Positions 10,474 through 31,766 of a DNA stretch of 31,766 nucleotides are shown here, in pieces. The position numbers and the translations under genes were made by a program. How positions within the stretch are numbered: the first letter of the stretch is position 1; every line of letters begins with the position of its first letter. This DNA is from Bacteroidota bacterium (lineage in GTDB: Bacteria > Bacteroidota > Bacteroidia > Bacteroidales > B39-G9). The notes under the pieces are model-generated. The model saw only the letters and a program-made list of their open reading frames with translations. It was not told the origin of the DNA and searched no databases. The stretch is from contig QMPG01000003.1 of assembly GCA_003648455.1 (NCBI GenBank), forward strand, positions 1 to 31,766, written 5' to 3'.

Positions 10474-10477
10474 AGTG

Positions 10478-10501
10478 AAAGGGGCTTCGGCCCCTTTTTT
10501 T
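10478..10501 (+). terminator. Rho-independent terminator between SSB and uvsX
   Basis: GGGGC-TTCG-GCCCC with flanking A and T runs (10478-10501). No promoter is visible between it and uvsX, so the downstream genes depend on read-through or antitermination. Confidence 0.9.
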
Positions 10502-10512
10502 AAAGAGGGAAC

Positions 10513-12079: not shown

Positions 12080-12081
12080 TA

Positions 12082-12414: not shown

Positions 12415-13766
12415 TGAAAATATTAATCACCGATGCGTATATTGCTATCGGTGATATGACAAAAGAACAGATGGTTGATATTAAATCCATCTTTACTTTT
12501 AAAGACATGTCAAAAGCAATGACAGCAAATGGTTTTAATAAAAGAAAAGTTAAAACCATTTGTTTTGCCAAGCAAAAAGGAAAAGCACTTGTTTTAAGAA
12601 CTGGTTTCTTAAAAGAACTCTTTAACTTTATAAAAGATGAAAGTATCCCAGTTGAAAGCATACAAGATAAGAGAACTAAATTATTTAAAACAAAACTCTC
12701 AGATGATGAACTGAGAACATACTTCAATCCAAACTTTAAATATGTGTCTCATCAAATCAGAGCAATAAAAGCATTATTGAAAACTAATGTGGGAATTATA
12801 AAAGCCCCTACCTCTGCAGGTAAAACAGAAATAATAATTGCTCTTCTTAAAATTTCAAAACTTCCAACATTAATTTTAGTTGATAGTGTCTCATTAGCAA
12901 CTCAAACCCTTAAAAGGTTTCATGACGCTGATATTGATTGTGGCATTTGCCACGGAAAAGCAAAAATTAATGGATATCATACAATAGCTACAATAGGTTC
13001 ATATAAAAAACTCGGAGATTTAACCAAATATAAAATGGTTATAGTTGATGAGTGTCATATCGTTGGATCAGCTAGGTTTCAAGAATTCTTTGAAACAACT
13101 AATTATCCTTATAGATATGGGTTCTCAGCCACTCCTGATGGAAATGACAAATATCGTTATGCAACAATCAGACAACATATAGGTGGAGAGATTTCAGAAA
13201 TCTTTACGGAAGAGTTGATAGAAAATAAAGTAATGGTTGCACCAAAAATAAAATTCATTACAACAGATTGTCCTCCAACCCCTTCTTGGGACGCAGCTTA
13301 TGAAAAGTGTATTACAAAGAACGAAGCTAGAAACAAAAAAATAGTAGAAGTTGCTTTAGAACAAGATGTTCCTACACTTATTTTGTATAAAATTATTGAA
13401 CACGGAAAAATCCTCGGTGATAAAATACCGAACTCAATTGTCTTGTCTGGAACTGATAGCGATAAGGTTCGAGAAGATGCTATTGCTAAATTCAAATCTG
13501 GTGAAATACAATATCTTATTGCTTCTAATATATTCAAACAAGGTATTTCAATTAATAACATTGAAACTCTCATTAACGCATCAGGTGGAAAATCTAAAAT
13601 AGAAGTCCTACAAAAAATAGGACGTGCTCTAAGATTACATAAAGGAAAAGATTACGCATTAGTCTATGATTTTATGGATAAAGGAAATAGATATACAGAA
13701 AGGCATTCCCTTCAACGTGAAAACTTATATAGAAAAACTGGTTTTGATGACATAGAAGTTATGTAA
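12414..13766 (+). CDS. uvsW: UvsW-like superfamily 2 helicase
   Basis: 450 residues. Motif I APTSAGKT (131-138), motif II DECH (212-215), motif III SATPDG (238-243) and motif VI QKIGRALR near 404-411. The N-terminal 110 residues match the position of the small T4 UvsW DNA-binding domain. UvsW remodels branched DNA, unwinds R-loops and links the switch from origin- to recombination-dependent replication. It is the last gene of the SSB-uvsX operon. The next gene starts after a late-type element beginning at this gene's 3' end. Confidence 0.88.
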   Translation: MKILITDAYIAIGDMTKEQMVDIKSIFTFKDMSKAMTANGFNKRKVKTICFAKQKGKALVLRTGFLKELFNFIKDESIPVESIQDKRTKLFKTKLSDDELRTYFNPNFKYVSHQIRAIKALLKTNVGIIKAPTSAGKTEIIIALLKISKLPTLILVDSVSLATQTLKRFHDADIDCGICHGKAKINGYHTIATIGSYKKLGDLTKYKMVIVDECHIVGSARFQEFFETTNYPYRYGFSATPDGNDKYRYATIRQHIGGEISEIFTEELIENKVMVAPKIKFITTDCPPTPSWDAAYEKCITKNEARNKKIVEVALEQDVPTLILYKIIEHGKILGDKIPNSIVLSGTDSDKVREDAIAKFKSGEIQYLIASNIFKQGISINNIETLINASGGKSKIEVLQKIGRALRLHKGKDYALVYDFMDKGNRYTERHSLQRENLYRKTGFDDIEVM

Positions 13767-18604: not shown

Positions 18605-18775
18605 ATGGACGAGATTACAAGATTAGAAGAAGCTATTGCGTTTGAGCAACAAAGGTTAGCTAATTTTATAGAAGAAGGTACAACTTCTTCCTCTGCGCTT
18701 CGTGATGTTTATTATGATATTATAAAAATGCAAGAAAAAATAAGGAGTCTTAGTGAAGGTATTGATAACGAGTGA
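18605..18775 (+). CDS. Small coiled-coil-like protein
   Basis: A 56-residue protein beginning MDEITRLEEAIAFEQQRL. AGGAG lies 7 nt before the ATG and a strong early promoter upstream. It overlaps the gp47 start by 23 nt, so it may feed ribosomes to gene 47. Helical with heptad-type leucines. No family recognised. Confidence 0.65.
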   Translation: MDEITRLEEAIAFEQQRLANFIEEGTTSSSALRDVYYDIIKMQEKIRSLSEGIDNE

Positions 18776-19730
18776 TTTACACATTCAATCAGGAATATAT
18801 ACAGACATTGGAATAGATTATATAGATTATCTATCGGAATACTGTAACGAATATGGGATAACAGACTTAATTATTGCTGGTGATATTTTTGAGAAATCAA
18901 GCAAGATTAATAATGATGCATTCATTCCATTGTTTTTTAAATTTATGGAGTTAAAGGAATCTGGTTTAAATATTACAATCGTATTAGGGAACCACGACAT
19001 TTACTCTGTTGACAATGATAGTTTAGTAGAAACGTTTGCTGTGTTTGGAAAAGTAATTAAGAATTTTGAACAAATTAAAATAGGTGGAAGGACAATAGAC
19101 TTTCTTCCTTATACTAAGGATGTTGATTTAGTCCCGAGTTCTGGAGATATTTTAATTACGCATCTTAGTATAGCAGATTTCTCTTTTGATAATAAGTTTC
19201 ACGTAAGTGAAAAAGCTGGAATGCCAAGAAAAATATTCGAAGGATACAACAAAGTATTCACAGGACATTTTCATAGACCACAAACCAAGGGAAACATTAT
19301 TTACATGGGTTCTCCATATCAAATGAACTTTGGCGAGATAGGACAAAGAAAAGGATTTGTTGTTTATGATTTAGAGTATGATGATTGGGAAAGAGTTTGG
19401 TATGAACAAGCTCCAATCTATAAGAAAATAACGGTTAATAATTTTCAAAACGAAGATGTAACTAATTGTTTTGTTCAAGTTGAAATAAAAGAAAAGATGG
19501 ATAATTACGTTCAATTAAAACACATTTTATATGAAAAAGGTGCTCTTATTGTATCTCCTAAATTTCTTGACTCCGAAGAAGAAATTACAGTTAATGAAGA
19601 AACGAAACTCGATATGAACTCTTCTGTTCCTGTAATGGTAAAAGAGTATATTCTTAATAGCATTGAGGCTACAGGAATTGACAATAAAGAGCTTGTTACA
19701 ATTTTTGATAAAGTGTTAGCAAGTATTTGA
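18753..19730 (+). CDS. 47: gp47-like recombination nuclease (SbcD/Mre11)
   Basis: 325 residues from a GTG start with AAGGAG at good spacing. All phosphoesterase motifs are present: SDLH (7-10), GDIF (43-46), GNHD (79-82), ITHLS with H137, and GHFH (171-174). With gp46 it forms the complex that resects double-strand ends for recombination-dependent replication. The upstream small gene overlaps its start. Its TGA stop is inside the next promoter's TTGACA. Confidence 0.92.
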   Translation: MKVLITSDLHIQSGIYTDIGIDYIDYLSEYCNEYGITDLIIAGDIFEKSSKINNDAFIPLFFKFMELKESGLNITIVLGNHDIYSVDNDSLVETFAVFGKVIKNFEQIKIGGRTIDFLPYTKDVDLVPSSGDILITHLSIADFSFDNKFHVSEKAGMPRKIFEGYNKVFTGHFHRPQTKGNIIYMGSPYQMNFGEIGQRKGFVVYDLEYDDWERVWYEQAPIYKKITVNNFQNEDVTNCFVQVEIKEKMDNYVQLKHILYEKGALIVSPKFLDSEEEITVNEETKLDMNSSVPVMVKEYILNSIEATGIDNKELVTIFDKVLASI

Positions 19731-19755
19731 CAATAAAAGAATAATAAGTTATAAT
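19727..19755 (+). promoter_or_regulatory. Early promoter abutting an ATG
   Basis: TTGACA (19727-19732), 17 bp, TATAAT (19750-19755). Only 5 nt (TAGAT) separate the -10 from the ATG at 19761, giving a leaderless mRNA. The -35 supplies the gp47 stop codon. Confidence 0.9.
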
Positions 19756-19760
19756 TAGAT

Positions 19761-19919
19761 ATGAAAACAACAAAAGGACGTTTGAAGTCCTTCCCAGTTA
19801 TATTTAGATACTTCTTAGAAGATACGATTATGATTAATCTAACGAAAGAGAAAGTAACAATTTTTTATGATGGGACTTACAAACAAACAAAAACAGGGCC
19901 AAGAGTTAAGAGGGGTTAA
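19761..19919 (+). CDS. Small hypothetical protein ahead of gp46
   Basis: A 52-residue basic protein beginning MKTTKGRLKSFPVIFRYF. It has no ribosome site because the promoter abuts its ATG. Its TAA overlaps the gp46 ATG (TAATG), so it may couple translation to gene 46. It is in the place of the small genes often found between 47 and 46 in T4 relatives, but no family is recognised. Confidence 0.6.
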   Translation: MKTTKGRLKSFPVIFRYFLEDTIMINLTKEKVTIFYDGTYKQTKTGPRVKRG

Positions 19920-22093
19920 TGAAACTTCAATATGTAAAACTAAAAAACTTCAAGAGTTATCCAGACCAGGAAACAACTGTTGATTTGAGTTTTGACGGCA
20001 TCAAACTTTTAGTCGGAGAGAACGGTGATGGAAAATCAACCTTTTTCGATGCTATTATTTGGGCCATCTATGGAAAAAACAAGGACGGTGTTGATGGTGT
20101 TGTCAATCGCAAAACTAAAAAGGATTGTAAGGTTGAAGTTGGCTTTAAAGTTGGTTCGTCTAGCTATTCAATTGTTAGATATAGGAAGCACGAGACAAAT
20201 GGTAATAAACTATTATTCTTTAAGGGAACTAAAAATATTTCACAGCGAACAGCAGGAGCAACTCAAGAGCTTATTGATGGAATAATTGAGATACAATATA
20301 ATACAATGATATCATCTGTAGTATTATCATCTGAATTATATACATCGTTTCTTCGGTCTTCTCGCGCTGATAGATTAAAAACGTTTGAGTCTATTCTTTC
20401 TTTGAAAGAAATTACTTTATTCTACAATAAACTCAAGAAGTTAAAAGAACCGATTGATGAAAAAGTTAGTAAATTAAACTTAGATATTGATAAAACTTTT
20501 GTAGCTATTAAATCTCTATCTGATAATATAGATGAATATAAAGATGGTGTTAAAAAAACACTACTTGCTTTTAAATCCGAAAAGGAAGCCTTACAAGGTG
20601 AGGTATTTCAACTAACAAGCAAAATATCAGAATATGATAGTATTGATGTAGACAAAGAAATTAATAACAACGAAGCTTATGATATTATTATTAAGCGGAT
20701 AAAAGAAATCGATGAATTAATTCTAATTGATAAAGGGAAACTAACTGATATAAACAGTTTAGTTGCTCAACTTGAGGATTGTGAAGAACAGATAGATAAC
20801 TATCAACGAATTGATATTCAAAAAGAGCTTATTCAAAATAAAGAATATTCTGATATTAAAGCAAAAAACGAAAAGGTCAATACAGCAATTGTAAAACTCT
20901 CTGCTGGAATAGTTTTAACTGGACACCTTGATAAAAACATAAAAGCTTTTCAAGATAAAATTTGGAATTTAGAAAAAGAAATAAAGAACATTCAAGAACA
21001 TCTTGATACTTGTCCTACTTGTGGACAAGAAGTAGAAAGAGAATTAACGGAAAAACTAGTAGCAGATAAAAATATTGTTCTTGATGATGTAAAAGTAAGC
21101 CTTAAAAAAGAGAAAGAAACATTAGAAAATGATTTAATCAAAAATAAAGAGATAGATGATGCTATCAAGAAATTAAAAGGTATGGTATCTGAAGCAATTG
21201 AGCCTGTTCATAGTGTTGAAATATTGCATGCAATGAGTGGAAAGTTAAAGGATGAAAAAAATAGAAGTCTTCTTCTCAAAAAAGATATTGAAAACGCAGA
21301 AAGTAATAATAAAGAAATTGAAACAAGGCTATCAGCGTATAGAGCAGAAAAGAAAATTAATGTAGATAATAAGTCTGAGCCTGAATATCATACTATGTTC
21401 CTGAAAGATTTAAGGGAAAAAATTGTTCTTCTTAAAGATGAAGCTGAAGAGAAAAGACAGAATATTCTAACAATAGATGTTAAAGCTAAATCTTCGTATG
21501 ATAAAGGTTATATAGATAACACTCAGGTGACAATAAAAGAGTTAAAGAAAACATTAACAAAAACCGATAAGAAACTAAAAAAAGCTACTATTGAAAAAAA
21601 ACACTATGAAGCCTTATTAACTATTTTCTCAAATAAGGATAGTGGATTTAAAAAGTTCTTTATTAATAAGATGGTTAGTATTTTTAATGATAGGGTTAAT
21701 TTTTATCTTCCATTCTTTTTTGATGATGATGTTGAAGTTGATTTTGATAAGGACTTAAATGAAGTTATAAAGATAAATAAAGAGGAAGTAACGTTTGCAT
21801 CATTTAGTTCAGGACAAAAAACAAGGTTTGATATAGCTATATCATTCTCACTTTTCTTCATGGTAAAGATGTTCTTTTCATCAACTATAAATCTTTTAGT
21901 GTTTGATGAAATATTGGATATGAATTTAGACAAAAAGGGATTTAATTCTGTGTATGAGATTATAGAGAATTTAGGGGATTTCAATACAGTTTTTGTTGTA
22001 TCCCATCAAGAGTTTTATAAGGAGAAGTTTAATCATCATATTCATATAAAGCGTAATAGTAAAGGATTTAGTTATATTTACAACGAGGTGTAA
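19919..22093 (+). CDS. 46: gp46-like recombination ATPase (SbcC/Rad50)
   Basis: 724 residues against about 560 in T4. N-terminal Walker A GENGDGKS (33-40). Long coiled-coil arms at about 170-580 are broken by a zinc-hook CPTC at 365-368. The C-terminal ABC signature FSSGQKTRFD lies near 629-638 and Walker B LLVFDEILD near 660-668. It dimerises through the hook and gates the gp47 nuclease in ATP-dependent resection. AAGAGGGG precedes the overlapped ATG. Confidence 0.93.
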   Translation: MKLQYVKLKNFKSYPDQETTVDLSFDGIKLLVGENGDGKSTFFDAIIWAIYGKNKDGVDGVVNRKTKKDCKVEVGFKVGSSSYSIVRYRKHETNGNKLLFFKGTKNISQRTAGATQELIDGIIEIQYNTMISSVVLSSELYTSFLRSSRADRLKTFESILSLKEITLFYNKLKKLKEPIDEKVSKLNLDIDKTFVAIKSLSDNIDEYKDGVKKTLLAFKSEKEALQGEVFQLTSKISEYDSIDVDKEINNNEAYDIIIKRIKEIDELILIDKGKLTDINSLVAQLEDCEEQIDNYQRIDIQKELIQNKEYSDIKAKNEKVNTAIVKLSAGIVLTGHLDKNIKAFQDKIWNLEKEIKNIQEHLDTCPTCGQEVERELTEKLVADKNIVLDDVKVSLKKEKETLENDLIKNKEIDDAIKKLKGMVSEAIEPVHSVEILHAMSGKLKDEKNRSLLLKKDIENAESNNKEIETRLSAYRAEKKINVDNKSEPEYHTMFLKDLREKIVLLKDEAEEKRQNILTIDVKAKSSYDKGYIDNTQVTIKELKKTLTKTDKKLKKATIEKKHYEALLTIFSNKDSGFKKFFINKMVSIFNDRVNFYLPFFFDDDVEVDFDKDLNEVIKINKEEVTFASFSSGQKTRFDIAISFSLFFMVKMFFSSTINLLVFDEILDMNLDKKGFNSVYEIIENLGDFNTVFVVSHQEFYKEKFNHHIHIKRNSKGFSYIYNEV

Positions 22094-22094
22094 C

Positions 22095-22502
22095 ATGGAA
22101 AAACAAACTCCGCCAATGCAATTAATGGATGAAATTATAACAAAACATAATTTCATTGATGTAATGAAGAATACTTATGGTTTAGCAATTTTAACTAATG
22201 GATCTTTTGTTAAAATCTTAAATAATTTTGAAGGAATTTGTGAAACCTGGAAGCTCTTTAACGAAGCAATGGCTATGGATGATGTGGAAGCTCAACAAAG
22301 AATTCTCTTAGAAAATACTAGAGGTGGAATTATAGATACAGGAACTACAGTAATTGATATTCAAACAATAGCAACTATGTATCCTTTATATAGAATGACA
22401 CATGATAATGAAGAAGTAAAAAAAATAAATAAATTTAAAATGAATGAAATAGATAATTTTATTTACTGGGATCAAACGATGGGAGAAACAGAAGACGAAT
22501 AA
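22095..22502 (+). CDS. Hypothetical protein downstream of gp46
   Basis: A 135-residue acidic protein, 1 nt after the gp46 stop, with GAGGTG at good spacing. It is therefore in the gp46 operon and ends it at a strong terminator. Mixed alpha/beta appearance with a GGIIDTGTTVIDIQTIATMY stretch. No family recognised. Confidence 0.65.
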   Translation: MEKQTPPMQLMDEIITKHNFIDVMKNTYGLAILTNGSFVKILNNFEGICETWKLFNEAMAMDDVEAQQRILLENTRGGIIDTGTTVIDIQTIATMYPLYRMTHDNEEVKKINKFKMNEIDNFIYWDQTMGETEDE

Positions 22503-22531
22503 AAAAAGACACTCAATTGAGTGTCTTTTTT
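22502..22531. terminator. Bidirectional rho-independent terminator
   Basis: The same GACACTCAATTGAGTGTC palindrome with A and T flanks as at 3980-4009, again between convergent genes (22502 + and 22533 -). Confidence 0.9.
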
Positions 22532-22532
22532 G

Positions 22533-23921
22533 TTATTTTGCTTCTGATTGTCTTGGATATTTTTCAACTGGTATGTCTACTTTCGTAGGACTTTCACTTC
22601 CTCTCATTGTAGTTACATTTGGAGCTACTTTTCTTTTAACTAGTCGTCTTGCTTTATCAGCATCTGCTCTAGCTTTATCTCTTATTGCTTTTGCATCTGC
22701 AAGTATTTTAGCTTTTATTGCTGGATCGTCACTTTCTATAAATTCTTTTAGTCTTTTAGGTGCCCATTTTTTAATAATTGCGTCACTTACTTCTGATTTG
22801 ATTTTTGATTTTACTTTGTCTGTAGTTGATTTGATAATAGGTGCTGCAACTTTAGCACCTCGTTTAATTCCAGCTTCTGCAACTTTAGCTGCTGAACCTA
22901 GTTTTTGTTTTAAAATATTTGCTGTTCTTGATTGAGTGACTTTTTCAGTTCCTTTCTTTATAGCTGAAGCCGCTTCTTTAGCTCTTCCACCTATTCTTTC
23001 TATTACATTGTCCATTGATTTTAGTTGTGCTTTATTAGATGCTGCGTTTATAATTTGTTTTACTTGTCCTAGGTAATTTTGTGAGTTTGTTGTTGCTTTT
23101 AGTCTTGATGAGAAGTTTGAGAAGTTTGAATAACGTTGTTCTTCTTTTTTGATTGAGTTTATTTTTTTGTTGACCGCCTTTTCCATATCGGTGGCAACTT
23201 TTTTCATTTTCATTTTTTTAACATCATTAACTGCTTTTTCAGAAGCATCGTTAACTTTTTCTAACGCTGCAGCTAAAGCTTCTTCTGCTTGTTTAGCAAT
23301 GTTAGATGGACCTTTAGGGTCATCAGGATTTACTTTCTGAACCTTATTCATAGGTTTTGAAAGTCTCTGAGTTTCCTTACCTCTTTTAATTAAATCAGCG
23401 GTTTTTAAATCAAGTGCGTCAGATGTTTCTTTTTCGGCCTTAGGTGTTTCTTCCGTACTTTTAGGAGCCTCAGTTTCCGCTTTTGGAGCTTCAGATGTCT
23501 TAGGTGTTTCAGTAGGAGTTTCCTTCTTAGAAGTTTTTATAGATTTGATATAAGGTTTAGTTCCCTTTCTAACATTCTGAATAATAGGTAAATCGCCTAT
23601 TTTATCATCACCTTCTGGTGTAAGATTAAGACTATCAAGAATTTCTTTATCAGCTTTAGTTGGTTTTGAAGATAAAACATCAATCGCTAAAGCAAGGTTT
23701 CTATAATCTTCTGTGTTTGTGCTGACAACTTTCTCCATAGCTGTTTGTAGAAAGTCATCTTTAAGTTCTTTAGATGCTTTTTTAACTATATCAGCGGCTA
23801 AAGTTTTTGCAGCTTTGCTTGTTTTAAACGCTGCTCCGCTTTGACTGATCATATCATCAAACGAAACAGGAGTTGCAGCTTCGTCTATTTTGTTATTGTA
23901 AAATTCTTTAAAGGATACCAT
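22533..23921 (-). CDS. Lys/Ala-rich late protein, probable virion component
   Basis: A 462-residue protein starting MVSFKEFYNNKIDEA. A low-complexity Pro/Glu/Thr/Lys linker at about 128-168 (ETPTETPKTSEAPKAETEAP) separates an N-terminal helical part from a long amphipathic Lys/Ala helical region up to about 420. The short N-terminal 'FkeF....' pattern recalls capsid-targeting leaders of T4 internal proteins, but weakly. CGGAGAAC and a perfect late element precede the start. A packaged internal or structural protein is the likeliest role. No enzyme motif is seen. Confidence 0.6.
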   Translation of the reverse strand: MVSFKEFYNNKIDEAATPVSFDDMISQSGAAFKTSKAAKTLAADIVKKASKELKDDFLQTAMEKVVSTNTEDYRNLALAIDVLSSKPTKADKEILDSLNLTPEGDDKIGDLPIIQNVRKGTKPYIKSIKTSKKETPTETPKTSEAPKAETEAPKSTEETPKAEKETSDALDLKTADLIKRGKETQRLSKPMNKVQKVNPDDPKGPSNIAKQAEEALAAALEKVNDASEKAVNDVKKMKMKKVATDMEKAVNKKINSIKKEEQRYSNFSNFSSRLKATTNSQNYLGQVKQIINAASNKAQLKSMDNVIERIGGRAKEAASAIKKGTEKVTQSRTANILKQKLGSAAKVAEAGIKRGAKVAAPIIKSTTDKVKSKIKSEVSDAIIKKWAPKRLKEFIESDDPAIKAKILADAKAIRDKARADADKARRLVKRKVAPNVTTMRGSESPTKVDIPVEKYPRQSEAK

Positions 23922-24629: not shown

Positions 24630-24658
24630 TTGACAATAAAAGAATAATAAGTTACAAT
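24630..24658 (+). promoter_or_regulatory. Early promoter of dnaE piece 1, abutting its ATG
   Basis: TTGACA (24630-24635), 17 bp with ATAAAAGAATAAT, TACAAT (24653-24658). Then TAGAC and the ATG at 24664: 5 nt, so leaderless. The PHP motif begins at residue 5, which fixes this start. Confidence 0.9.
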
Positions 24659-24663
24659 TAGAC

Positions 24664-25953
24664 ATGAGTTACTCACATTTACATCTTCATACACACATGG
24701 GATCAACCTTAGACGGAATAGGTTCATCTGAACAATATGCTAAATTAGCAAAAGAGCTTGGGCACCCAGCGATAGCTATAACAGATCACGGAAAAATGAA
24801 CGGGCATTACGAACATTATTTAGCGTGTAAGAAATACGGAATAAAACCAATCTTCGGAGTTGAAGCTTATGTTGAGTTTGAACTTGAAAGAACAGAAATA
24901 GTTAAAGAAAAAGAGAAGCGTGTTCGTAATAAGAATATGCATCTCGTTCTTCTTGCAAAAAACGAAATAGGTTATCATAACTTACTTAAACTAAACTACA
25001 TATCAAACTCAGATGAACAACATTATTATTACAAAAACCATATTCTACTTAAAGAACTTTTTAAACACAAGGAAGGAATTATTGTAGGAACTGCGTGTAT
25101 GGGTTCTCCATTTTCAAGATTACATATGGATGGAGAAGTTGAAAAATCAGAAAAACTTTTTAAACTATTCAAAGAACAATTCGGTGATGATTTTTACGCA
25201 GAGATACAACTAAATGAGATAACACATAGTATTGATAACTTCAAAGAAGGACAGAAATCTGTAAATGAATGGATTATTCACTTAGCTAAAAAATATGAAG
25301 TTCCAATAGTTTTAACTGGTGACGTTCATTATGCAACAAAAGGACTTGATAGAATACAAACACTTGCAATTGCAATTAGTCGTGGTGTAACTCTTAAAGA
25401 AATGGATTGGGATTTAGAAGGAAAGAGTTTATTCTATATGGATAAAAAAGACTTTCATCAATTCAATAAAGATTGGGGATATAATTATACAGATGAAGAG
25501 CTAGAAGAGTGGATGGATAATACTCAGTTAATTGTTGATAAATGTAGTTTTGAGTTCAAAGAGAGAAATAGATTGCTCCTTCCAACTTTTTCAGAAGATG
25601 ATGATAGTTTATTAATAACTGAAAGTAAGAAAGGTTTGATTGACAAGATGGGAGTTTCAGAGTGGTCTGAAGTTCCAGTGGAGTATCGTAAGAGATTAGG
25701 AAAAGAAGTTGAAATTATTCTCAGGAAAGGATTTGCTTCTTATATAATGATACTTTGGGATGTATTTAATTTTGCGAGAGATGAAGAAATAATGAGAGGC
25801 CCCGCGAGAGGCTCTGGTGGAGGTAGTCTTTTGTTGTTCGCTCTTGATATTTCAACATTAGATCCAATTAAATATGGACTTATTTTTGAAAGGTTTTTAA
25901 GTGATGAAAGAAGTGTGGATGTAGTTTATGATTATTTTGGAGAGGCAATATGA
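24664..25953 (+). CDS. dnaE: DNA polymerase III alpha (DnaE), piece 1: PHP and first palm half
   Basis: 429 residues. The N-terminal PHP domain has HLHLHTH (5-11), ITDHG (39-43), GVEAY (65-69), a TACMGS stretch and a GDVHY motif, so many metal ligands are kept and proofreading-type activity is possible. The palm start includes YIMILWDVFNFARDEE, GPARGSGGGSLL (379-390) and YGLIFERFLSDER (404-416). In intact DnaE the next residues are the catalytic 'PDIDIDF'. Here the frame reads SVDVVYDYFGEAI and stops. The catalytic Asp residues are instead on the separate gene at 29061. The next gene starts inside its stop (ATGA). It should work only together with the other pieces. Confidence 0.9.
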   Translation: MSYSHLHLHTHMGSTLDGIGSSEQYAKLAKELGHPAIAITDHGKMNGHYEHYLACKKYGIKPIFGVEAYVEFELERTEIVKEKEKRVRNKNMHLVLLAKNEIGYHNLLKLNYISNSDEQHYYYKNHILLKELFKHKEGIIVGTACMGSPFSRLHMDGEVEKSEKLFKLFKEQFGDDFYAEIQLNEITHSIDNFKEGQKSVNEWIIHLAKKYEVPIVLTGDVHYATKGLDRIQTLAIAISRGVTLKEMDWDLEGKSLFYMDKKDFHQFNKDWGYNYTDEELEEWMDNTQLIVDKCSFEFKERNRLLLPTFSEDDDSLLITESKKGLIDKMGVSEWSEVPVEYRKRLGKEVEIILRKGFASYIMILWDVFNFARDEEIMRGPARGSGGGSLLLFALDISTLDPIKYGLIFERFLSDERSVDVVYDYFGEAI

Positions 25954-26225
25954 ATTTAATACACAAACAAGAGTTAGAGATTTATGATATAAATATTTTA
26001 CATTTACCTTATAATTCTAAAATATTAAAAGTAGCTGAGCAAGATGAAAAACTTATGGTTTGGTATATTTATGATTATAGTTATATTGAAAAAAAAGAAA
26101 AGCGTATTTTTTATATTTATGGAACTGGAAATCCCATTGATACTTATGATGTAAGAACAAGAGAACATATTGATACTATTCTTATGTCTAACGGATTAGT
26201 TTGGCATATTTTTCTAGCAGTTTAA
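25950..26225 (+). CDS. DUF7352-like phage protein
   Basis: A 91-residue protein whose ATG overlaps the piece 1 stop, with GGAGAGG upstream. The pattern 'l.lP..skIL.v.eQ..kl..W', then YIYGTGNPID and a C-terminal GLVWHIF resembles the small DUF7352 family seen in many phages (from memory). Function unknown. It is the first gene of the block interrupting dnaE. Confidence 0.6.
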   Translation: MNLIHKQELEIYDINILHLPYNSKILKVAEQDEKLMVWYIYDYSYIEKKEKRIFYIYGTGNPIDTYDVRTREHIDTILMSNGLVWHIFLAV

Positions 26226-26235
26226 GTAAAGATAA
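26226..26235 (+). promoter_or_regulatory. Late-type promoter element
   Basis: A perfect GTAAAGATAA right after the DUF7352-like gene's stop, 16 nt before the ATG at 26252. It is the only perfect copy found inside the otherwise early dnaE region. Confidence 0.5.
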
Positions 26236-26251
26236 TATCAGTGAGGACGAG

Positions 26252-26530
26252 ATGACTAAAGAACTAAAAGTTAGATGCCGAGGTTGTGGTAAACCTTTTG
26301 ATGCAAGATTTGATATAAACGATCCTATGGATTATGCTTTTTGTCCAGTATGTAAGGAAGTTGTTGAAATCAACACTGGTTTGCACGGACAACTTAAGCC
26401 AAAACATGTTTTAGACAAAAGAAAGAAAGACAAAAAAATAAAAAAAGATAAAGAACTCAAAGATAAAAGAGAAAAAGATCTAATTAAATACTTAGAGAAG
26501 CTCGCTAAAGAAAAAGACAAAGATAAATAA
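26252..26530 (+). CDS. Zinc-ribbon protein with charged tail
   Basis: A 92-residue protein starting MTKELKVRCRGCGKPF. A zinc ribbon CRGC (9-12) pairs with CPVC near 32-35. The C-terminal 40 residues are nearly all Lys, Asp and Glu (KKDKKIKKDKELKDKREKD). TGAGGA lies at proper spacing, and the longer frame from 26201 would overlap the previous gene without a ribosome site. Probably nucleic-acid or RNA-polymerase binding, by composition only. Confidence 0.65.
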   Translation: MTKELKVRCRGCGKPFDARFDINDPMDYAFCPVCKEVVEINTGLHGQLKPKHVLDKRKKDKKIKKDKELKDKREKDLIKYLEKLAKEKDKDK

Positions 26531-26532
26531 TC

Positions 26533-26561
26533 TTGACAGAAAAAGAATAATAGTTTATACT
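26533..26561 (+). promoter_or_regulatory. Early promoter of the helicase gene, abutting its ATG
   Basis: TTGACA (26533-26538), 17 bp with GAAAAAGAATAAT, TATACT (26556-26561), then TAGGT and the ATG at 26567. The 5-nt gap implies a leaderless mRNA. Confidence 0.88.
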
Positions 26562-26566
26562 TAGGT

Positions 26567-27886
26567 ATGACAGAAGAAGAAAAAACTGAACTAAGAAAAG
26601 TTGCTGAAAAATATCTCAAAGACTTTAATACCTTAGATTATGAACTCAACGATGAACTTAGAAAAGCTATTCTTATGGCAGAATTATCTGAGAAGAATTT
26701 AATTATCTCTGGAAGTGCCGGAACTGGCAAATCCACTTTTATAGAATTACTTCAATTAAACAGCAACAAGAATTATGTTATACTTGCCCCTACCGGAGTA
26801 GCCGCTGTGAATGTGGGTGGTGTTACTGTCCATTCATTTTTCAAATTTCCTCATGGTATCATAAATAAATACGCAGTCAATAAAAGTATCAAAGACCTCG
26901 TAATGAAACTCGACGCAATTATCATAGATGAAATTTCTATGGTTCGTGCAGATATGATGGACGCAATAGATTACCAGCTAAGAGTATTAACAGGAAATGC
27001 CGAGAAACCGTTTGGTGGAATTAAGATTATCGCAATTGGCGACTTATTCCAATTACCACCAATCGTTCAAAAGGGAAGTCCTGATGAGAAATACATTAGT
27101 GATAGTTTTTATTCTTCCTGGTTTTTCTCTGCACCAGATATCGGTAAATTCACTATTGTCGAATTGAAGAAAATCTATCGACAGAACGATGAAGAGTTTA
27201 GAGGTGTCCTTAATAAGATTAGGATTGGAAAACAATCTTGGAATGATTTAAAGTATATTAATCAACGAGTAGTAAAAGAAGAAGACTTCGGTAAAGATTA
27301 TGTTTATCTATCTACTACTAATAAAGTTGCTGATGAAATCAATCAAAATAAATTGAATGAACTTCCAGGAATTACTGAATATAAATACAGTAAAATATAT
27401 GGAACGTTTCCTCCATCAATGTATCCAACTCTTGATGTATTACAACTGAAGGTTGGTGCTCAAATAATGATGTTGAGAAACACACCTTGGTATTATAATG
27501 GTCAAGTTGGTTCTATAATTGCATTATCAAAAGACAACATCGCCGTTGAACTTGAAGATGGAAGTCAGTATTTTATTAATCCTGAAACTTGGTTTAATTA
27601 TGAATACGAATTGAAAGATGGAAAAATTCGAATGATTGAAAAGGGGTCTTTCGCTCAATATGCAATTAAACTAGCTTGGGCTATTACTATCCATAAAAGT
27701 CAAAGTAAAACATATAATAAAGTCTATATTGATTTAGGTAATGGTGCTTTTAGCGCTGGACAAACTTATGTTGCTCTTTCTCGATGTAAAACCCTTGGTG
27801 GTATTGGGTTGAAATATAAAGTGGATAAAAGGGATATCATTGTTGATAGAACTTTGAAAGAGTATTTTATGCCAAAATTAGCTTGA
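26567..27886 (+). CDS. dda: Dda/Pif1-like superfamily 1 DNA helicase
   Basis: A 439-residue helicase. Walker A GSAGTGKS (49-56), APTGVAAVNVGG near 74-85, DEIS (121-124), GDLFQLPP (158-165), and the C-terminal AITIHKSQSKTYNKVYID and YVALSRCK motifs of the Pif1/RecD2/Dda group. In T4, Dda is a 5'-3' helicase that helps start replication and strip proteins. The gene has its own early promoter and sits between dnaE pieces 1 and 2. Its TGA stop falls within the next TTGACA. Dda versus Pif1 naming is not certain. Confidence 0.88.
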   Translation: MTEEEKTELRKVAEKYLKDFNTLDYELNDELRKAILMAELSEKNLIISGSAGTGKSTFIELLQLNSNKNYVILAPTGVAAVNVGGVTVHSFFKFPHGIINKYAVNKSIKDLVMKLDAIIIDEISMVRADMMDAIDYQLRVLTGNAEKPFGGIKIIAIGDLFQLPPIVQKGSPDEKYISDSFYSSWFFSAPDIGKFTIVELKKIYRQNDEEFRGVLNKIRIGKQSWNDLKYINQRVVKEEDFGKDYVYLSTTNKVADEINQNKLNELPGITEYKYSKIYGTFPPSMYPTLDVLQLKVGAQIMMLRNTPWYYNGQVGSIIALSKDNIAVELEDGSQYFINPETWFNYEYELKDGKIRMIEKGSFAQYAIKLAWAITIHKSQSKTYNKVYIDLGNGAFSAGQTYVALSRCKTLGGIGLKYKVDKRDIIVDRTLKEYFMPKLA

Positions 27887-27911
27887 CAATAAAAGAATAA
27901 TAGAATATAAT
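27883..27911 (+). promoter_or_regulatory. Early promoter of the HNH gene
   Basis: TTGACA (27883-27888), 17 bp with ATAAAAGAATAAT, TATAAT (27906-27911). There are 9 nt to the ATG at 27921, so the leader is at most a few nucleotides. The -35 supplies the helicase stop codon. Confidence 0.88.
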
Positions 27912-27920
27912 TAGGTAAGA

Positions 27921-28616
27921 ATGAAAAAATGTAGTTTTTGCAAAAAAGAAAAACCTCTCGAAGATTTTGGAAAACTATCATCAAGTAAAGATGGATTAAA
28001 TTCAGCGTGCAAAATTTGTAGAAAAGAAATTAATATTAAAAGTTATGAAAAGGTTGGAAGAAAACAAAATACTGATAAACAAAAAGAAGCAATTAAAAAC
28101 TATAAAGCAAAATGGTTTCAAGATAATAAAAAGAGAATTAGAGAGAATATATTAACTGACGAGCAAAAAGTAAAAGTAAAAAAATATAAAGCTGATTGGT
28201 TTCAAGAAAATAAAAAAAGACTAAATAAGATTAATTTAATGAGAAGAAAAACTGAACCAAAAGTTAAAATAAATCATTTAATGTCTGGTGCTATCTTAAA
28301 GTGTTTAGGTAGAGATAAGAATGGAAATAAATGGACTGAAATAGTTGGATATACAGCAGAGGATTTATTAAATCATTTTGAAGTCGATGTAATACCAAAA
28401 GGGTATCATATAGACCATATCATTCCTATAAACGCTTATGATTATTCATCTATTGATGATGAATTTTTGAAGTGTTGGAACATTAGAAATTTAAGAATAA
28501 TTCCAGCTAAGGAAAATTTATCAAAGGGAGATAAACTTGACAAAAAGATGATAATTGAACATAATATAATAGACTTATTACCGAAGGAGGTAGTCTTTGA
28601 AGGACTGGACTTTTGA
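27921..28616 (+). CDS. HNH endonuclease with N-terminal zinc finger, next to an intron
   Basis: A 231-residue protein. The N-terminal C4 finger reads CSFCKKEKPLEDF then ACKIC. A Lys-rich middle shows two similar segments (YKAKWFQDNKKR and YKADWFQENKKR). The HNH core is GYHIDHIIPINAY near 160-172 and CWNIRNLRIIPAKEN near 185-199. It is free-standing and lies about 220 nt upstream of an ORF-less group I intron, an arrangement known as collaborative homing when the nuclease cuts the intron-minus site. Related in design to the minus-strand HNH at 23963-24592. Confidence 0.85.
   Translation: MKKCSFCKKEKPLEDFGKLSSSKDGLNSACKICRKEINIKSYEKVGRKQNTDKQKEAIKNYKAKWFQDNKKRIRENILTDEQKVKVKKYKADWFQENKKRLNKINLMRRKTEPKVKINHLMSGAILKCLGRDKNGNKWTEIVGYTAEDLLNHFEVDVIPKGYHIDHIIPINAYDYSSIDDEFLKCWNIRNLRIIPAKENLSKGDKLDKKMIIEHNIIDLLPKEVVFEGLDF
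28537..28565 (+). promoter_or_regulatory. Possible degenerate early promoter
   Basis: TTGACA (28537-28542), 17 bp reading AAAAGATGATAATTGAA, CATAAT (28560-28565). It resembles the early family but has a weak -10 and lies within HNH coding sequence, upstream of the gene at 28597. Confidence 0.3.
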
Positions 28617-28896
28617 AGAATTAAAAAATACTTGTGATGAAGAGGTAAAAAAATATCCTCATCTTGAAAAAAAGTATAAAAAAGAACTTTCAATCGCCAA
28701 ACGTTTTTATAAAAATGGAAGAAATCTATATCAGGAACTAATAGACAAGAAAGATAAAATAGATACAAGATATATTATACCATACTTGTTAAAAATAACA
28801 GATACATGGATAGATAAAAATCCTGTTTATATTCAGGTTAGTTCTGGAGCCTCAGGTGGTAAGGCTTATGCCACCCGTTATAGAAATATAGCGTAA
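28597..28896 (+). CDS. Small protein interrupted near its end by a group I intron
   Basis: It starts at TTG with a very strong AAGGAGG 4 nt upstream, overlapping the HNH 3' end. Unspliced it reads 99 residues, the last 18 encoded by intron DNA (VSSGASGGKAYATRYRNIA region). If the intron 28839-29051 is removed, the frame becomes 81 residues ending KNPVYIQV followed at once by TAA, and the dnaE piece 2 ATG comes 6 nt later. Helical, Lys-rich, no recognised family. A faint resemblance to the DnaE pre-palm region was considered and not accepted. Confidence 0.6.
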   Translation: MKDWTFEELKNTCDEEVKKYPHLEKKYKKELSIAKRFYKNGRNLYQELIDKKDKIDTRYIIPYLLKITDTWIDKNPVYIQVSSGASGGKAYATRYRNIA

Positions 28897-29051
28897 AAAA
28901 TGTTCTAAATTGTCGGGGAACTCCAGAGATGGACAATCCGCAGCGAAACCCGAAAGGGGACGTTCAACGACTATAATGGACTACCTAAACGTAAAGTCGT
29001 AGGTAAAGGGATAGTCTGATCTTGCTATATAATCTAAAAATAAAAAGCAAG
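28839..29051 (+). ncRNA. ORF-less group I intron (about 213 nt)
   Basis: The conserved core is readable. P1 is AGGU (ending at 28838, U at the splice site) with GCCT (28849-28852). P2 is GGTGG (28855-28859) with CCACC (28871-28875). Then come CGGGGAAC and GACAATCCGCAG (P4/Q-type), a CCCGAAAGGG P6-type hairpin, and GTTCAACGACTAT (R) containing P7 GACTAT (28969-28974) paired with ATAGTC (29011-29016, S). P9 is CTTGCT (29021-29026) with AGCAAG (29046-29051), its last G serving as omega-G. The order and spacing match T4 td-like IA2 introns. Core call is strong; exact ends are inferred. Confidence 0.85.
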
Positions 29052-29060
29052 CTAACATAA

Positions 29061-29672
29061 ATGATAGATATAGATACTGATTGGCAGGGCGATGGACGAG
29101 AAAAAATCTACAATTATCTCAACAAAAAATACGGCAGCGAAAGAGTTCTCCACGTGGGAACGTTTTCTACGCTCGGACCTGCATCAGCGGCTAAGGATAT
29201 TCTCCGTGCAAATAGTATCGACTTTGGCAAATCTAATAAATTTACTAAAGTTCTTGAAAAACAGGAAACGTGGCAAGAAAACTTAGATAGAATAAAAGCA
29301 AACGATAAAGATAATTGGAAGTTTTATCTTGACAATAAAGAAGTTCTCGATGATGTTCCTCACCTTATCGGTAAAATCCGACAAAGTGGAAAACATGCTG
29401 GAGGAATTGTTGTAAGTGAGAAACCTATTTATAATTATATTCCAGTTGATAGAGTAAAAGGGGAAGTTGTAACAGCTTTTCCGGAGAGTGGAAGCAATAC
29501 TGTTCTTGATGAAATAGGTATTATTAAATATGATATATTAGGTATTTCAATTTTAGATGTTATGGCAGAAGCTATTGAAATGGTTGATGAAAAAATGTAT
29601 GAAATAGAAGAAGATGGAATTAGAAAAGTAGTTCCAGCTAGCTATATAGATAAGGAGATAGAGAAACTATAA
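29061..29672 (+). CDS. dnaE: DnaE piece 2: catalytic palm segment
   Basis: A 203-residue protein starting MIDIDTDWQGDGREKI, which corresponds to the 'PDIDIDF' catalytic motif of DnaE with D5 and D7 as the metal Asp pair. It continues with YGSERVLHVGTFSTLGP (24-40), SGKHAGGIVVS (109-119) and GIIKYDILG (153-161), where D158 is the third catalytic Asp. It ends before the 'ldd...y.l...dt.GvFQl' segment found in the gene at 31620. No ribosome site precedes the ATG; it lies 10 nt after the intron's 3' end, so splicing and coupling to the small upstream gene may control its translation. It must combine with pieces 1 and 3 to make an active site. Confidence 0.88.
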   Translation: MIDIDTDWQGDGREKIYNYLNKKYGSERVLHVGTFSTLGPASAAKDILRANSIDFGKSNKFTKVLEKQETWQENLDRIKANDKDNWKFYLDNKEVLDDVPHLIGKIRQSGKHAGGIVVSEKPIYNYIPVDRVKGEVVTAFPESGSNTVLDEIGIIKYDILGISILDVMAEAIEMVDEKMYEIEEDGIRKVVPASYIDKEIEKL

Positions 29673-29890
29673 TGGGAATTAAAAATAAAGAAGTAATGCA
29701 ATTAATTAACAGCAAGACAAAAGAGATGGAAAAACATCTTAATGTAATAGAGGAAGAGCTACAAAAAGATGATGATAGATTTAAGAAAGCTGTCGTAGCT
29801 ATTTCATCAGGAAAAATTATGAAACTACATCAAGATATAGCATATTTTCTTGGCGTGTTCGATGACAATCCAAAGTATGAGGGAAATTAA
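29672..29890 (+). CDS. Small hypothetical protein
   Basis: A 72-residue helical protein. Its ATG overlaps the stop of dnaE piece 2 (TAATG), and its own stop overlaps the ligase ATG, so it is coupled on both sides. Coiled-coil-like N-terminus (NSKTKEMEKHLNVIEEELQK). No family recognised. Confidence 0.6.
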   Translation: MGIKNKEVMQLINSKTKEMEKHLNVIEEELQKDDDRFKKAVVAISSGKIMKLHQDIAYFLGVFDDNPKYEGN

Positions 29891-31203
29891 TGCTTAAAGA
29901 ATTACAGGAAATGGTTGATGATTTAACATCAACAAATTCAAATAATGAAAAAATTGAAAGATTAGCTAAGTATGAAAATTTAAAGAAAATCATAAAGTAT
30001 GCTCATAATCCAATGATGCAATTTTATGTCACTTCCAAGACTGTAGAGAAATATGCTAAAACTAATAATAAAGTTAGTGATGAATGGACTAGTGTTGATG
30101 AAGAAGGTTTGTTTGATTTATTAGATAAATTAAGCACAAGAGAACTATCAGGGCATAATGCTCTTAATGCAGTTGAAAGCTATATTACTGGCTCAGGTAG
30201 AGAAGAATATAAAGATTTAATTTATTCTGTTATAGATAAAAACCTGAAAATAAGAATGAGTGATACTACTATCAACAAAGTATTTCCAGAATTAATTCCA
30301 GAGTTCAAAGTTCAACTAGCCGACAAAATTGATATAGATAAAATACCAGATTTCGAAAATGAAAAATGGTTTGCGTCAAGAAAGCTTGATGGTGTAAGAT
30401 GTATTACCATAGTGAAACAAGGAAGTGTTAAGTTTTATAGTAGAACCGGAAAGGAATTTACTACACTTGATTTAGTTCAAAAAGCAATTAGAAAAGAGTT
30501 AATAAGTTTATCTGGGTTGGACTTTGTTCTTGATGGTGAAATGTGTATTATTGATGAAAATGGTAATGAAGACTTCACAAGTATAATTAAAGTAATTCGT
30601 AAAAAAGATTATACTATTTTAAACCCAAGGTATAAAATTTTCGACTTCTTATCATTAAATGACTTCTTAAAGAAATCAAGTAATGAAGTTTTTTCATCTA
30701 GGTATAAAGTTTATAGCGAGATAAAATCTCCTTCTGGTATTCTTAGCCCTGTAGAACAAGTTTATATAGACAGTGCTAAAACTTTCAGTGAGTTGTCTGA
30801 GCAAGCAGATGAACTTGGATGGGAAGGACTTATCGTTAGAAAAGATGTTAAGTATGCAGGAAAACGTTCTAAGAATATGTTAAAAGTAAAACAGTTTCAC
30901 GAAGCTGAATATGAAGTTCAGGCAATAACTAGTGGAATGATTAGATTTATTTCAAAAGAAACCGGACTTGAAGAAGAAGAGATAATGCTTAGTAATGTGG
31001 TTATTGAGCATCTTGGAAATAATGTTGGGGTTGGTTCTGGATTTACCTTAGAACAACGTCAAAGTTTCTTTAAAAATCCGGATTTGATTATAGGAAAAAC
31101 CATAACAGTTAAATACTTTGAAGAAAGTCAGGATAAAGATGGTAATGTTTCTTTGAGGTTCCCTGTCGTAAAGCATATTTATGATGGAGCGAGGGAAGTT
31201 TAA
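29890..31203 (+). CDS. 30: ATP-dependent DNA ligase (T4 gp30-like)
   Basis: 437 residues against about 487 in T4. The adenylation motif I KLDG with K165, motif III-type LDGEMCI (214-220), motif IV WEGLIVRK (311-318) and motif V MLKVKQF (330-336) are all present. An all-helical N-terminal DNA-binding part spans about 1-150 and an OB-fold follows motif V. It seals nicks in replication and repair. GAGGG precedes the ATG. The gene sits between dnaE pieces 2 and 3. Confidence 0.92.
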   Translation: MLKELQEMVDDLTSTNSNNEKIERLAKYENLKKIIKYAHNPMMQFYVTSKTVEKYAKTNNKVSDEWTSVDEEGLFDLLDKLSTRELSGHNALNAVESYITGSGREEYKDLIYSVIDKNLKIRMSDTTINKVFPELIPEFKVQLADKIDIDKIPDFENEKWFASRKLDGVRCITIVKQGSVKFYSRTGKEFTTLDLVQKAIRKELISLSGLDFVLDGEMCIIDENGNEDFTSIIKVIRKKDYTILNPRYKIFDFLSLNDFLKKSSNEVFSSRYKVYSEIKSPSGILSPVEQVYIDSAKTFSELSEQADELGWEGLIVRKDVKYAGKRSKNMLKVKQFHEAEYEVQAITSGMIRFISKETGLEEEEIMLSNVVIEHLGNNVGVGSGFTLEQRQSFFKNPDLIIGKTITVKYFEESQDKDGNVSLRFPVVKHIYDGAREV

Positions 31204-31589
31204 TGTTAGACATCAATAAAGATATTCTCAACGAGAAGTACAACGAAGGTGATATGGAATATTTTTTTGATAAGGCTAGTAAAATAGCGGACTTCGTACT
31301 AACAAAAACATACAAAGTATATGATACTGAAAAAAGAGCTGATATGGTTCAGGAGTGTCTTGAAAATCTTTGGAAGAAAGTTCAACAAGGCAAAGTTGAT
31401 GGCTCAAAAAACTTAATGAGTTTTGTTTGGCAAAACTCAACGTTTAGAATAAAAGAAATCCTAAGAAAAGAAAAAAATAGAAATCGCATTGCTCCTTTTA
31501 TTTCATATGATAATGATGAAATGGAATTTATGAAAGGAATTGATAGCAATAAATATGGAGAAGCAGAAATAGCTAAGATATTTATTTGA
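31203..31589 (+). CDS. gp55-like sigma factor candidate
   Basis: A 128-residue protein with a sigma region 2-like helical stretch: KRADMVQECLENLWKKVQ near 46-63, then LMSFVWQNSTFRIKEILRKE near 73-92 and a basic KNRNRI. The same layout occurs in T4 gp55, the late sigma factor, which is longer (about 185). No region 4 is present, as in gp55. GAGGGA precedes the ATG, which overlaps the ligase stop. It would direct RNA polymerase to late promoters, perhaps the GTAAAG[A/G]TAA element seen here. Its stop is inside the next promoter's TTGACA. Confidence 0.6.
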   Translation: MLDINKDILNEKYNEGDMEYFFDKASKIADFVLTKTYKVYDTEKRADMVQECLENLWKKVQQGKVDGSKNLMSFVWQNSTFRIKEILRKEKNRNRIAPFISYDNDEMEFMKGIDSNKYGEAEIAKIFI

Positions 31590-31614
31590 CAGAAAAAGAA
31601 TAATTAAGTATAAT
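31586..31614 (+). promoter_or_regulatory. Early promoter of dnaE piece 3, abutting its ATG
   Basis: TTGACA (31586-31591), 17 bp with GAAAAAGAATAAT, TATAAT (31609-31614), then TAAAT and the ATG at 31620. The 5-nt gap is the same as for piece 1. Confidence 0.9.
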
Positions 31615-31619
31615 TAAAT

Positions 31620-31766
31620 ATGATAAAAGTAATTAGAGAAGTATCTAAACAAGATTTAAAGGATCACCTGTACGATTTAAATACAGATGATCCTAATATT
31701 TATGTTGAAGCTAATAATGATAATAGTATTGGTATCTTTCAGCTCAATGGAAATCTTGCACACGAA
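31620..31766 (+). CDS. dnaE: DnaE piece 3 (partial, runs off the window)
   Basis: The first 49 codons of a plus-strand gene, beginning MIKVIREVSKQDLKDHLYDL. The stretch NTDDPNIYVEANNDNSIGIF followed by QLNG corresponds to the DnaE segment 'ipldDkk.y.ll...dT.gvFQle' that directly follows the third catalytic Asp region ending piece 2. It has its own leaderless early promoter. The fingers and C-terminal parts are presumably encoded beyond the window. Confidence 0.75.
   Translation, partial: MIKVIREVSKQDLKDHLYDLNTDDPNIYVEANNDNSIGIFQLNGNLAHE

What the first reader, a model, noticed from the sequence alone, without database searches (positions are those of the whole stretch)
24664..31766. Replicative DnaE split into at least three separately started genes
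Consecutive parts of one family C polymerase lie in order but apart. PHP plus the GPxRGSxxGSL palm half ends at 25953, the catalytic palm segment with all three Asp starts at 29061, and the following 'D..GiFQL' segment starts at 31620. The gaps hold a helicase, HNH nuclease, intron, ligase and sigma-like gene. Pieces 1 and 3 have near-identical early promoters, so the pieces look expressed rather than decayed. The palm active site would have to be built from separate chains. Split gp43 and split-intein DnaE are known elsewhere; a three-piece, intein-free DnaE interleaved with other replisome genes is new to me.
Basis: partly seen in the sequence, partly recalled or inferred. Interest (0 to 1): 0.92.

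Follow-up and report, generated by a model that had tools for sequence, protein, structure and literature searches.

The report
Phage replicative polymerase in three genes
An uncultivated phage encodes its DnaE-type replicative DNA polymerase as three separate proteins, so its active site has to be put together from different chains; many related metagenomic phages do the same, which points to an established design and not a broken gene.

Summary
N (24664-25953) carries PHP and the RGS half of the palm. C (from 31620) begins the fingers and is cut by the contig end. M does not start at 29061: that ATG is the end of a 203-nt group I intron (28861-29063). M starts near 28597; splicing joins 88 + 202 codons in frame. 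An intronless near-twin protein matches the 3' exon 202/202.

The 88 residues are most of a ~100-aa palm insertion; one relative has N and M as a single 715-aa ORF containing it. Stand-alone N, M and C have many metagenomic homologues of uniform length. The early promoter motif precedes N and C here, and N, M and C in three relatives. PolA and PolB were absent from 10 contigs (one of 201 kb), none proven complete. No intein or second group I intron was found at the N|M or M|C junction.

Best reading: a three-subunit DnaE assembled non-covalently. Precedents: two-gene DnaE in phage P1201, split PolA and PolB elsewhere. New, as far as the searches show: the break inside the palm, three chains, and its spread in uncultured phages. 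No activity was tested.

The parts
24630..24658 (+). early-type promoter of N (TTGACA-17-TACAAT), 5 nt before the ATG
   Evidence: motif TTGACANNAAAAGAATAA, 10 exact copies in the window; sequence
24664..25953 (+). dnaE-N: 429 aa, PHP domain + palm half with GPARGSGGGS and FERFL, conserved tail SVDVVYDYFGEAI
   Evidence: Pfam PF02811 and PF07733 11-99; 75-77% identical in 3 relatives; 1212 homologues within the tool's length limits
27883..27911 (+). early-type promoter before the HNH gene and, behind it, M
27921..28616 (+). free-standing HNH/endonuclease-VII-like gene directly upstream of and overlapping M; possible mobility partner of the intron (inference)
   Evidence: phrog_1035 E=3.6e-18; no match between dda and M in L004 and L005, about 100 codons left in L003
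28537..28565 (+). candidate promoter of M (TTGACA-17-CATAAT) inside the 3' end of the HNH gene
   Evidence: read by eye from the sequence; in L003-L005 the early motif starts 47-65 nt before M
28597..28860 (+). dnaE-M 5' exon: 88 aa, TTG start behind GAAGGAGG; the greater part of the palm insertion
   Evidence: continuous with the catalytic part in L004 (295 aa), L005 and P0009
28861..29063 (+). group I intron, 203 nt, no ORF; P1 pairs GGTGGT (exon) with GCCACC; ends in G
   Evidence: RF00028 60.5 bits, E=3.9e-15 in a 341-base search; 197/203 identical to the 202-nt intron of L003
29064..29672 (+). dnaE-M 3' exon: 202 aa, catalytic IDIDTDW pair and third Asp (KYD) of the palm
   Evidence: PF07733 102-260; 202/202 identical to intronless P0009
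31586..31614 (+). early-type promoter of C, 5 nt before the ATG
31620..31766 (+). dnaE-C, first 49 codons (start of the fingers, GIFQL); cut off by the contig end
   Evidence: PF17657 3-51, below the cut-off; in relatives about 500-540 aa

Best explanation
The phage's replicative DNA polymerase is a family C (DnaE) enzyme made as three proteins: N (PHP + first half of the palm), M (second half of the palm with the three catalytic Asp, preceded by an added helical segment) and C (fingers and the rest). They assemble non-covalently into one polymerase. Shown: three genes, their domain content, conservation, spacing, promoter motifs, an in-frame group I intron in M, and the lack of a detected intein or second group I intron at the junctions. 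Inferred: M is joined by self-splicing before translation; the pieces bind one another, using the segments that flank the breaks (N tail, the ~88-aa M leader, the M C-terminal hairpin-helix and the C N-terminus) as docking surfaces; the assembly replicates the phage genome. Origin (inferred): the gene broke at the palm|fingers boundary and inside a ~100-aa palm insertion; other genes and homing nucleases then settled in the gaps.
Against: No complex was modelled or measured; the tool folds single chains only. All contigs are metagenomic and none is known to be complete, so another polymerase is not excluded. C is only 49 codons here. The M leader evolves faster than the rest (second-position divergence 0.23-0.25 against 0.05-0.08 for the catalytic exon). 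14 of 120 listed N lack the RGS pattern, 3 of them with an intein domain, and 27 of 120 lack the HxHxx.GS pattern sought in the first 60 residues; the patterns are crude.
Confidence: 0.83

Rival explanations
1. The pieces are rejoined covalently: by RNA trans-splicing of a split intron or by protein trans-splicing with an unrecognised mini split intein at N|M and M|C.
For: The neighbourhood is full of such elements: a cis group I intron in M; split inteins with an HNH gene between the halves inside C of L003 and inside M of L005, and split intein halves inside C of L059.
Against: Only 12 residues follow ERS in N, and no Hint/intein family matches N, M or the ORFs between. No group I intron was found in 25880-28700 or 29500-31766 (weak, see Tried and rejected). 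The intron's P1 fits its own upstream exon exactly. In L004, with no intron or intein in N, M or the visible 483 codons of C, the three are still separate. Each piece has its own promoter motif in three relatives.
Confidence: 0.06
2. The pieces are remnants: the polymerase is decaying and the phage uses the host replicase or another polymerase.
For: Fragments of a normally single gene; mobile elements in and around it; contigs not proven complete.
Against: Uniform lengths and kept catalytic motifs across many homologues; codon-position pattern of purifying selection; no PolA or PolB found in 10 contigs; conserved promoter motifs.
Confidence: 0.04
3. The three-chain DnaE works but is an accessory (repair or translesion) polymerase and not the main replicase.
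For: No polymerase activity or phenotype is known; helicase, ligase and gp46/47-like recombination genes surround it, as in a repair and replication cluster.
Against: No other polymerase found in the 201-kb L005 contig; early-type promoters; synteny with replication genes.
Confidence: 0.07

Closest known systems
Corynebacterium phage P1201 gp59 + gp58 (NC_009816)
   Same: DnaE in two annotated, adjacent, slightly overlapping genes; gp59 (652 aa) ends after the palm, gp58 (476 aa) starts just before the GIFQF fingers motif: the same palm|fingers break as M|C.
   Different: PHP and the whole palm are one chain; no palm insertion, no N|M break, nothing between the genes. Whether both are made as separate proteins there was not checked (frameshift not excluded).
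Split PolA of OM43 phages MEP401/MEP402 (PMC10580990, passages seen)
   Same: Phage replicative polymerase annotated in two ORFs with a small ORF between, also in most related metagenomic genomes (so the paper).
   Different: Family A, two ORFs; the authors consider an intron possible.
Cyanobacterial DnaE with split intein (recalled; cited in PMC3919608, passages seen)
   Same: DnaE encoded by separated genes.
   Different: There a split intein ligates the halves (recalled); here no intein was found at the N|M and M|C junctions. Relatives have split inteins at other sites within C or M.
Split gp43 (PolB) of some T4-like phages (recalled) and split PolB of phage MIJ3 (PMC6892783, passages seen)
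   Same: Phage replicative polymerase in more than one gene with a homing nuclease nearby.
   Different: Other polymerase family; [quoted passage not shown]
Bacillus phage G gp329 / gp331 / gp339 (JN638751)
   Same: DnaE in three annotated ORFs (gp331 unlabelled in the record; assigned here by sequence and), with a homing endonuclease (gp330) and seven genes in the gaps.
   Different: Breaks lie inside motifs and the ORF ends look unrelated to DnaE, as in intron-interrupted genes; no Rfam intron was found there, so its nature is open.
Group I introns in phage dnaE, e.g. Bacillus phage KLEB27-3 gp166/165/164
   Same: Probable group I intron in a phage dnaE (22.2 bits, below the gathering score of 50).
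   Different: There the interruption holds an HNH gene and the exons continue one chain; here the intron has no ORF and sits inside one of three separate genes.

Membership tests
Family C DNA polymerase (DnaE) | PHP domain | tested here: met
   PF02811, E=1.7e-35 in N
Family C DNA polymerase (DnaE) | palm GxxRGSxxGS motif | tested here: met
   GPARGSGGGS in N; RGSGGGS invariant in 4 phages
Family C DNA polymerase (DnaE) | catalytic Asp pair and third Asp | tested here: met
   IDIDTDW and KYD in M; columns D95, D97, D250 invariant in 14 M
Family C DNA polymerase (DnaE) | fingers domain | tested here: inconclusive
   window: 49 codons, 19.1 bits, below the cut-off of 22; 7 of 10 contigs over the cut-off
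Family C DNA polymerase (DnaE) | fold of PHP + palm | tested here: met
Family C DNA polymerase (DnaE) | one continuous polypeptide | tested here: not met
   three genes, 2.6 and 1.9 kb apart
Family C DNA polymerase (DnaE) | polymerase activity | not testable with these tools
   needs bench work
Split-intein DnaE | IntN/IntC at the junctions | tested here: not met
   no Hint/intein match in N, M or the ORFs between; the C end of piece C is not in the window
Group I intron | conserved core above the gathering score | tested here: met
   RF00028 60.5 against 50 bits
Group I intron | P1 with U.G at the 5' splice site, terminal G | tested here: met
   GGTGGT|AAGG..GCCACC and ..ATG| read from the sequence
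Group I intron | exons joined as in an intronless homologue | tested here: met
   P0009, L004 M
Group I intron | self-splicing | not testable with these tools
   needs in vitro splicing or RNA reads

The most novel reading that the evidence does not exclude
A large, so far uncultivated phage group replicates with an obligate three-subunit DnaE whose catalytic palm is a heteromer: one chain brings the RGS loop, a second the metal-binding Asp, a third the fingers. Purpose-made docking segments flank each break, and the subunits are separately promoted. The split is older than most of the group; single-chain N-M forms in it are later re-fusions.
Probability: 0.6. Interest if true: 0.82.

Novelty: new variant of a known kind. 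Interest (0 to 1): 0.7.

Why it matters
Replicative polymerases are normally one catalytic chain. A natural, long-lived, widely shared three-chain version broken through the active-site domain would show that the palm of a C-family polymerase tolerates being a heteromer. It would give a ready-made split polymerase with fused, adjacent and separated natural versions to compare. It also warns that surveys that discard DnaE fragments lacking an intact active site (as PMC3919608 says it did, passages seen) cannot see such enzymes.

Tried and rejected
Piece 2 as a gene starting at ATG 29061: rejected (intron end). Intron splicing of N to M: the intron's P1 pairs perfectly with its own upstream exon, while the end of N offers no such match (read by eye); no other group I intron found in the gaps.

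The whole-window Rfam scan missed the intron; only the 341-base search found it, so 'no Rfam match' in longer stretches is weak evidence.

Bacillus phage KLEB27-3 as a cultured example of split DnaE: rejected, intron-interrupted. Other cultured phages looked at have a single annotated gene: Moorella phage MTATph1, Psychrobacillus phage Perkons, Bacillus phage vB_BcoS-136, Pseudomonas phage DL52. These are a handful of the 1284 records with an N match.

The paper believed most relevant (Kazlauskas et al. 2016, recalled) and Dassa et al. 2009 (named) are not held. Paper searches listed no paper whose title or abstract start reports a three-gene DnaE; I opened passages of four listed papers. Subscription journals are mostly absent, so this does not show that it is unreported.

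Rows dropped: for the tree I left out P0109, P0142, P0187 and P0214 (one near-copy, three intein-bearing) and used the first 430-440 residues of fused and intact proteins. Contig co-occurrence uses equal contig lengths of 5 kb or more as a stand-in for identity, on listed rows only (106 M; 115 N, leaving out P0109 and the 4 fused; 120 C).

Full report
What is there. N (24664-25953, 429 aa) has the PHP domain and the first part of the DnaE palm (PF02811 1.7e-35, PF07733 positions 11-99). The segment 29061-29672 continues PF07733 from position 102 to 260. The contig ends 147 bases into a gene that begins like the DnaE fingers (PF17657 positions 3-51, 19.1 bits, under the cut-off). Between them lie a DUF7352 gene, a Dda-like helicase, an HNH/endonuclease-VII-like gene and an ATP-dependent ligase. 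The 'sigma-like' gene has no family match; I keep the name as a label only.

Correction of the middle piece. A search of 28780-29120 finds a group I intron over 28851-29037 (RF00028, 60.5 bits, gathering score 50). P1 is GGTGGT|AAGGCTTATGCCACC with a U.G at the splice site, and the sequence ends ..ACATAAATG, which puts the intron at 28861-29063. The upstream ORF (TTG 28597 behind GAAGGAGG) is the 5' exon: 88 codons, in phase with the 202 codons downstream. L004 has the same protein without intron as one 295-aa ORF, and L005 has it uninterrupted at this place. P0009, an intronless protein from another contig, is identical to the 3' exon over 202/202 residues and to the 5' exon over 72/84. The intron is shared with L003 (197/203 identical), where the 120 exon bases on either side are only 82/120 and 93/120 identical, as expected of a recently moving element.

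The organisation is conserved. Within the stretches fetched, the close relatives L003, L004 and L005 have N, a Dda-like helicase, M, a 72-aa gene, the sigma-like gene and C in this order, with the ligase in the window and L005 only. More distant ones (about 45-56% identical in N over most of its length) keep N, M, the sigma-like gene and C downstream of a gp46-like gene, also gp47-like where the stretch reaches it: L018, L050 (= L060), L058, L059, L061; L066 ends before C. The N-to-M distance, measured to the start of the open frame, is -4 nt (ATGA overlap) in L050, 8 nt in L061, 147 nt in L058, and 1.0-4.1 kb in the other seven loci measured. In L019/L020 (two contigs) N and M are one 715-aa ORF, in which the N tail and the M leader together form a ~100-aa insertion ahead of the catalytic Asp pair. 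Intact DnaE of about 1070-1130 aa from phages about 33% identical in N (L021, L024-L041 and others) also have 109-116 residues between FERFL and the catalytic motif in the 10 measured; L022 and L023 do not, by the alignment.

Numbers. Protein searches gave 106 M-like proteins, 91 of them 280-330 aa; 1212 N-like, of the 120 listed 112 are 400-435 aa and 4 are fused forms of 708-714 aa; and 227 C-like, of the 120 listed 103 are 470-555 aa. The length limits of the tool exclude intact DnaE from the N and M lists, so these are not frequencies of split against intact; they do show that the stand-alone forms are numerous and uniform. The fingers motif GxFQ was located in 100 of 120 C, median residue 37, range 19-42; no listed C carries M sequence (0 of 120). 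Of 92 M of 270 aa or more, 88 have both catalytic patterns; the other 4 lack the second and all carry an intein domain. By equal contig length of 5 kb or more, 42 contigs hold at least two separate pieces and 8 all three (a stand-in for identity). In 50,697 phage records the M of L004 has hits in 597, and 0 cover 80% of it. In one genome for each of 84,980 species the pattern search found one locus, in a contig filed under a Nealsonbacteria MAG; this does not prove a host.

Selection and expression. Window against relatives, third codon positions differ by 0.44-0.46 in N (second positions 0.09-0.13) and 0.40-0.45 in the catalytic exon (0.05-0.08). The M leader is looser, 0.42-0.52 against 0.23-0.25. 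The motif TTGACANNAAAAGAATAA occurs 10 times without mismatch in the window; 0.42 would be expected with up to 2 mismatches. It stands before N, dda, M and C in L003, L004 and L005. In the window it precedes N, dda, the HNH gene and C, and six other places; M has a TTGACA-17-CATAAT sequence at 28537-28565, read by eye. The motif was not found in the fetched stretches of L018, L019 or L050, so promoter evidence is limited to the close relatives.

Tree. In a tree of 126 N sequences (113 split, 5 fused, 8 intact outgroup) the intact ones fall outside. The 5 fused ones lie inside the split group and need 4 changes, or 5 with the outgroup counted as joined. Fusion looks secondary, but support within the group is uneven, the method was 'quick', and long branches were flagged.

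No rival polymerase. PF00476 and PF00136 match 0 of 10 contigs, including the 201-kb one, while the controls ring in 10 and 5 of 14 genomes. PF07733 finds only the pieces in the window and in three relatives. PF17657 finds one place in each of 8 of 10 contigs and none in 2 short ones. The contigs may be incomplete.

How it most likely works. Shown: three genes, an intron-containing M, conserved active-site parts on N and M, conserved ends. Inferred: after intron removal the three chains assemble. The palm forms across N and M, C docks through the extra segments at the M C-terminus and its own N-terminus, and the assembly is the replicase. Confidence 0.83 in a non-covalent three-chain enzyme.

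Compared with the known. Corynebacterium phage P1201 has DnaE as gp59 + gp58 broken at the same palm|fingers point, so the M|C break has a precedent. Split PolA is reported for OM43 phages and most of their metagenomic relatives (PMC10580990, passages), and split PolB with a putative split intein for phage MIJ3 (PMC6892783, passages). Bacillus phage G has DnaE in gp329, gp331 and gp339, of unclear nature. I found no precedent for the break inside the palm or for three intein-free chains in the searches named. Two papers I would have checked are not held. I therefore file it as a new variant of a known kind (split phage polymerases).

Noticed in passing
window 24653-24664, 26556-26567, 31609-31620: The -10 element ends 5 nt before the ATG of N, dda and C, so their mRNAs should be leaderless. 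For C the distance from TTGACA to ATG is kept at 34-35 nt in all four phages; for N it is 34 nt here but 45-47 nt in the three relatives.
   Followed up: partly
window 27921-28616; L003 9246-9545; L005 9680-9734: A free-standing HNH gene sits directly before the ORF-less intron's host gene. L003 keeps 100 codons of it (71% identical) and the L005 leader still reads like its C-terminus (by eye), as if the gene came and went: a candidate for collaborative homing with the intron.
   Followed up: partly
L003 12253-15063, L059 9486-12320, L005 9734-11928: Split inteins break C (L003, L059) and M (L005) again, with an HNH gene between the halves in L003 and L005, making four genes for one polymerase.
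   Followed up: partly
L050 5777-8251, L048 8573-10957, L019 13258-15291: Contiguous inteins inside N at the RGS motif (L050) and inside C (L048, same contig as L005; L019 by sequence only, not scanned): a dnaE crowded with mobile elements at several sites.
   Followed up: partly
Bacillus phage G JN638751 239245-250008: dnaE lies in gp329, gp331 and gp339 with a homing endonuclease (GIY-YIG type by eye) and then seven genes between. Broken mid-motif and no Rfam intron found; large intron, trans-splicing or another mechanism is open.
   Followed up: partly
window 28861-29063: The permissive Rfam scan of the whole window missed a group I intron that scores 60.5 bits when a 341-base stretch is searched.
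   Followed up: yes
P0077: An M-like protein on a contig of 939,135 bases; whether a huge phage or a host contig was not looked at.
   Followed up: no
window 22443-22534 and 10474-10501: Two weak Rfam hits (Phe_leader, BSR0709) look like intrinsic terminators: hairpin followed by a T run.
   Followed up: no
window 9637-13763, 18753-22093: T4-like replication and recombination set (ssDNA-binding protein, UvsX-like, helicase, SbcD/SbcC-like = gp47/gp46-like) but a DnaE in place of the T4-type PolB.
   Followed up: partly
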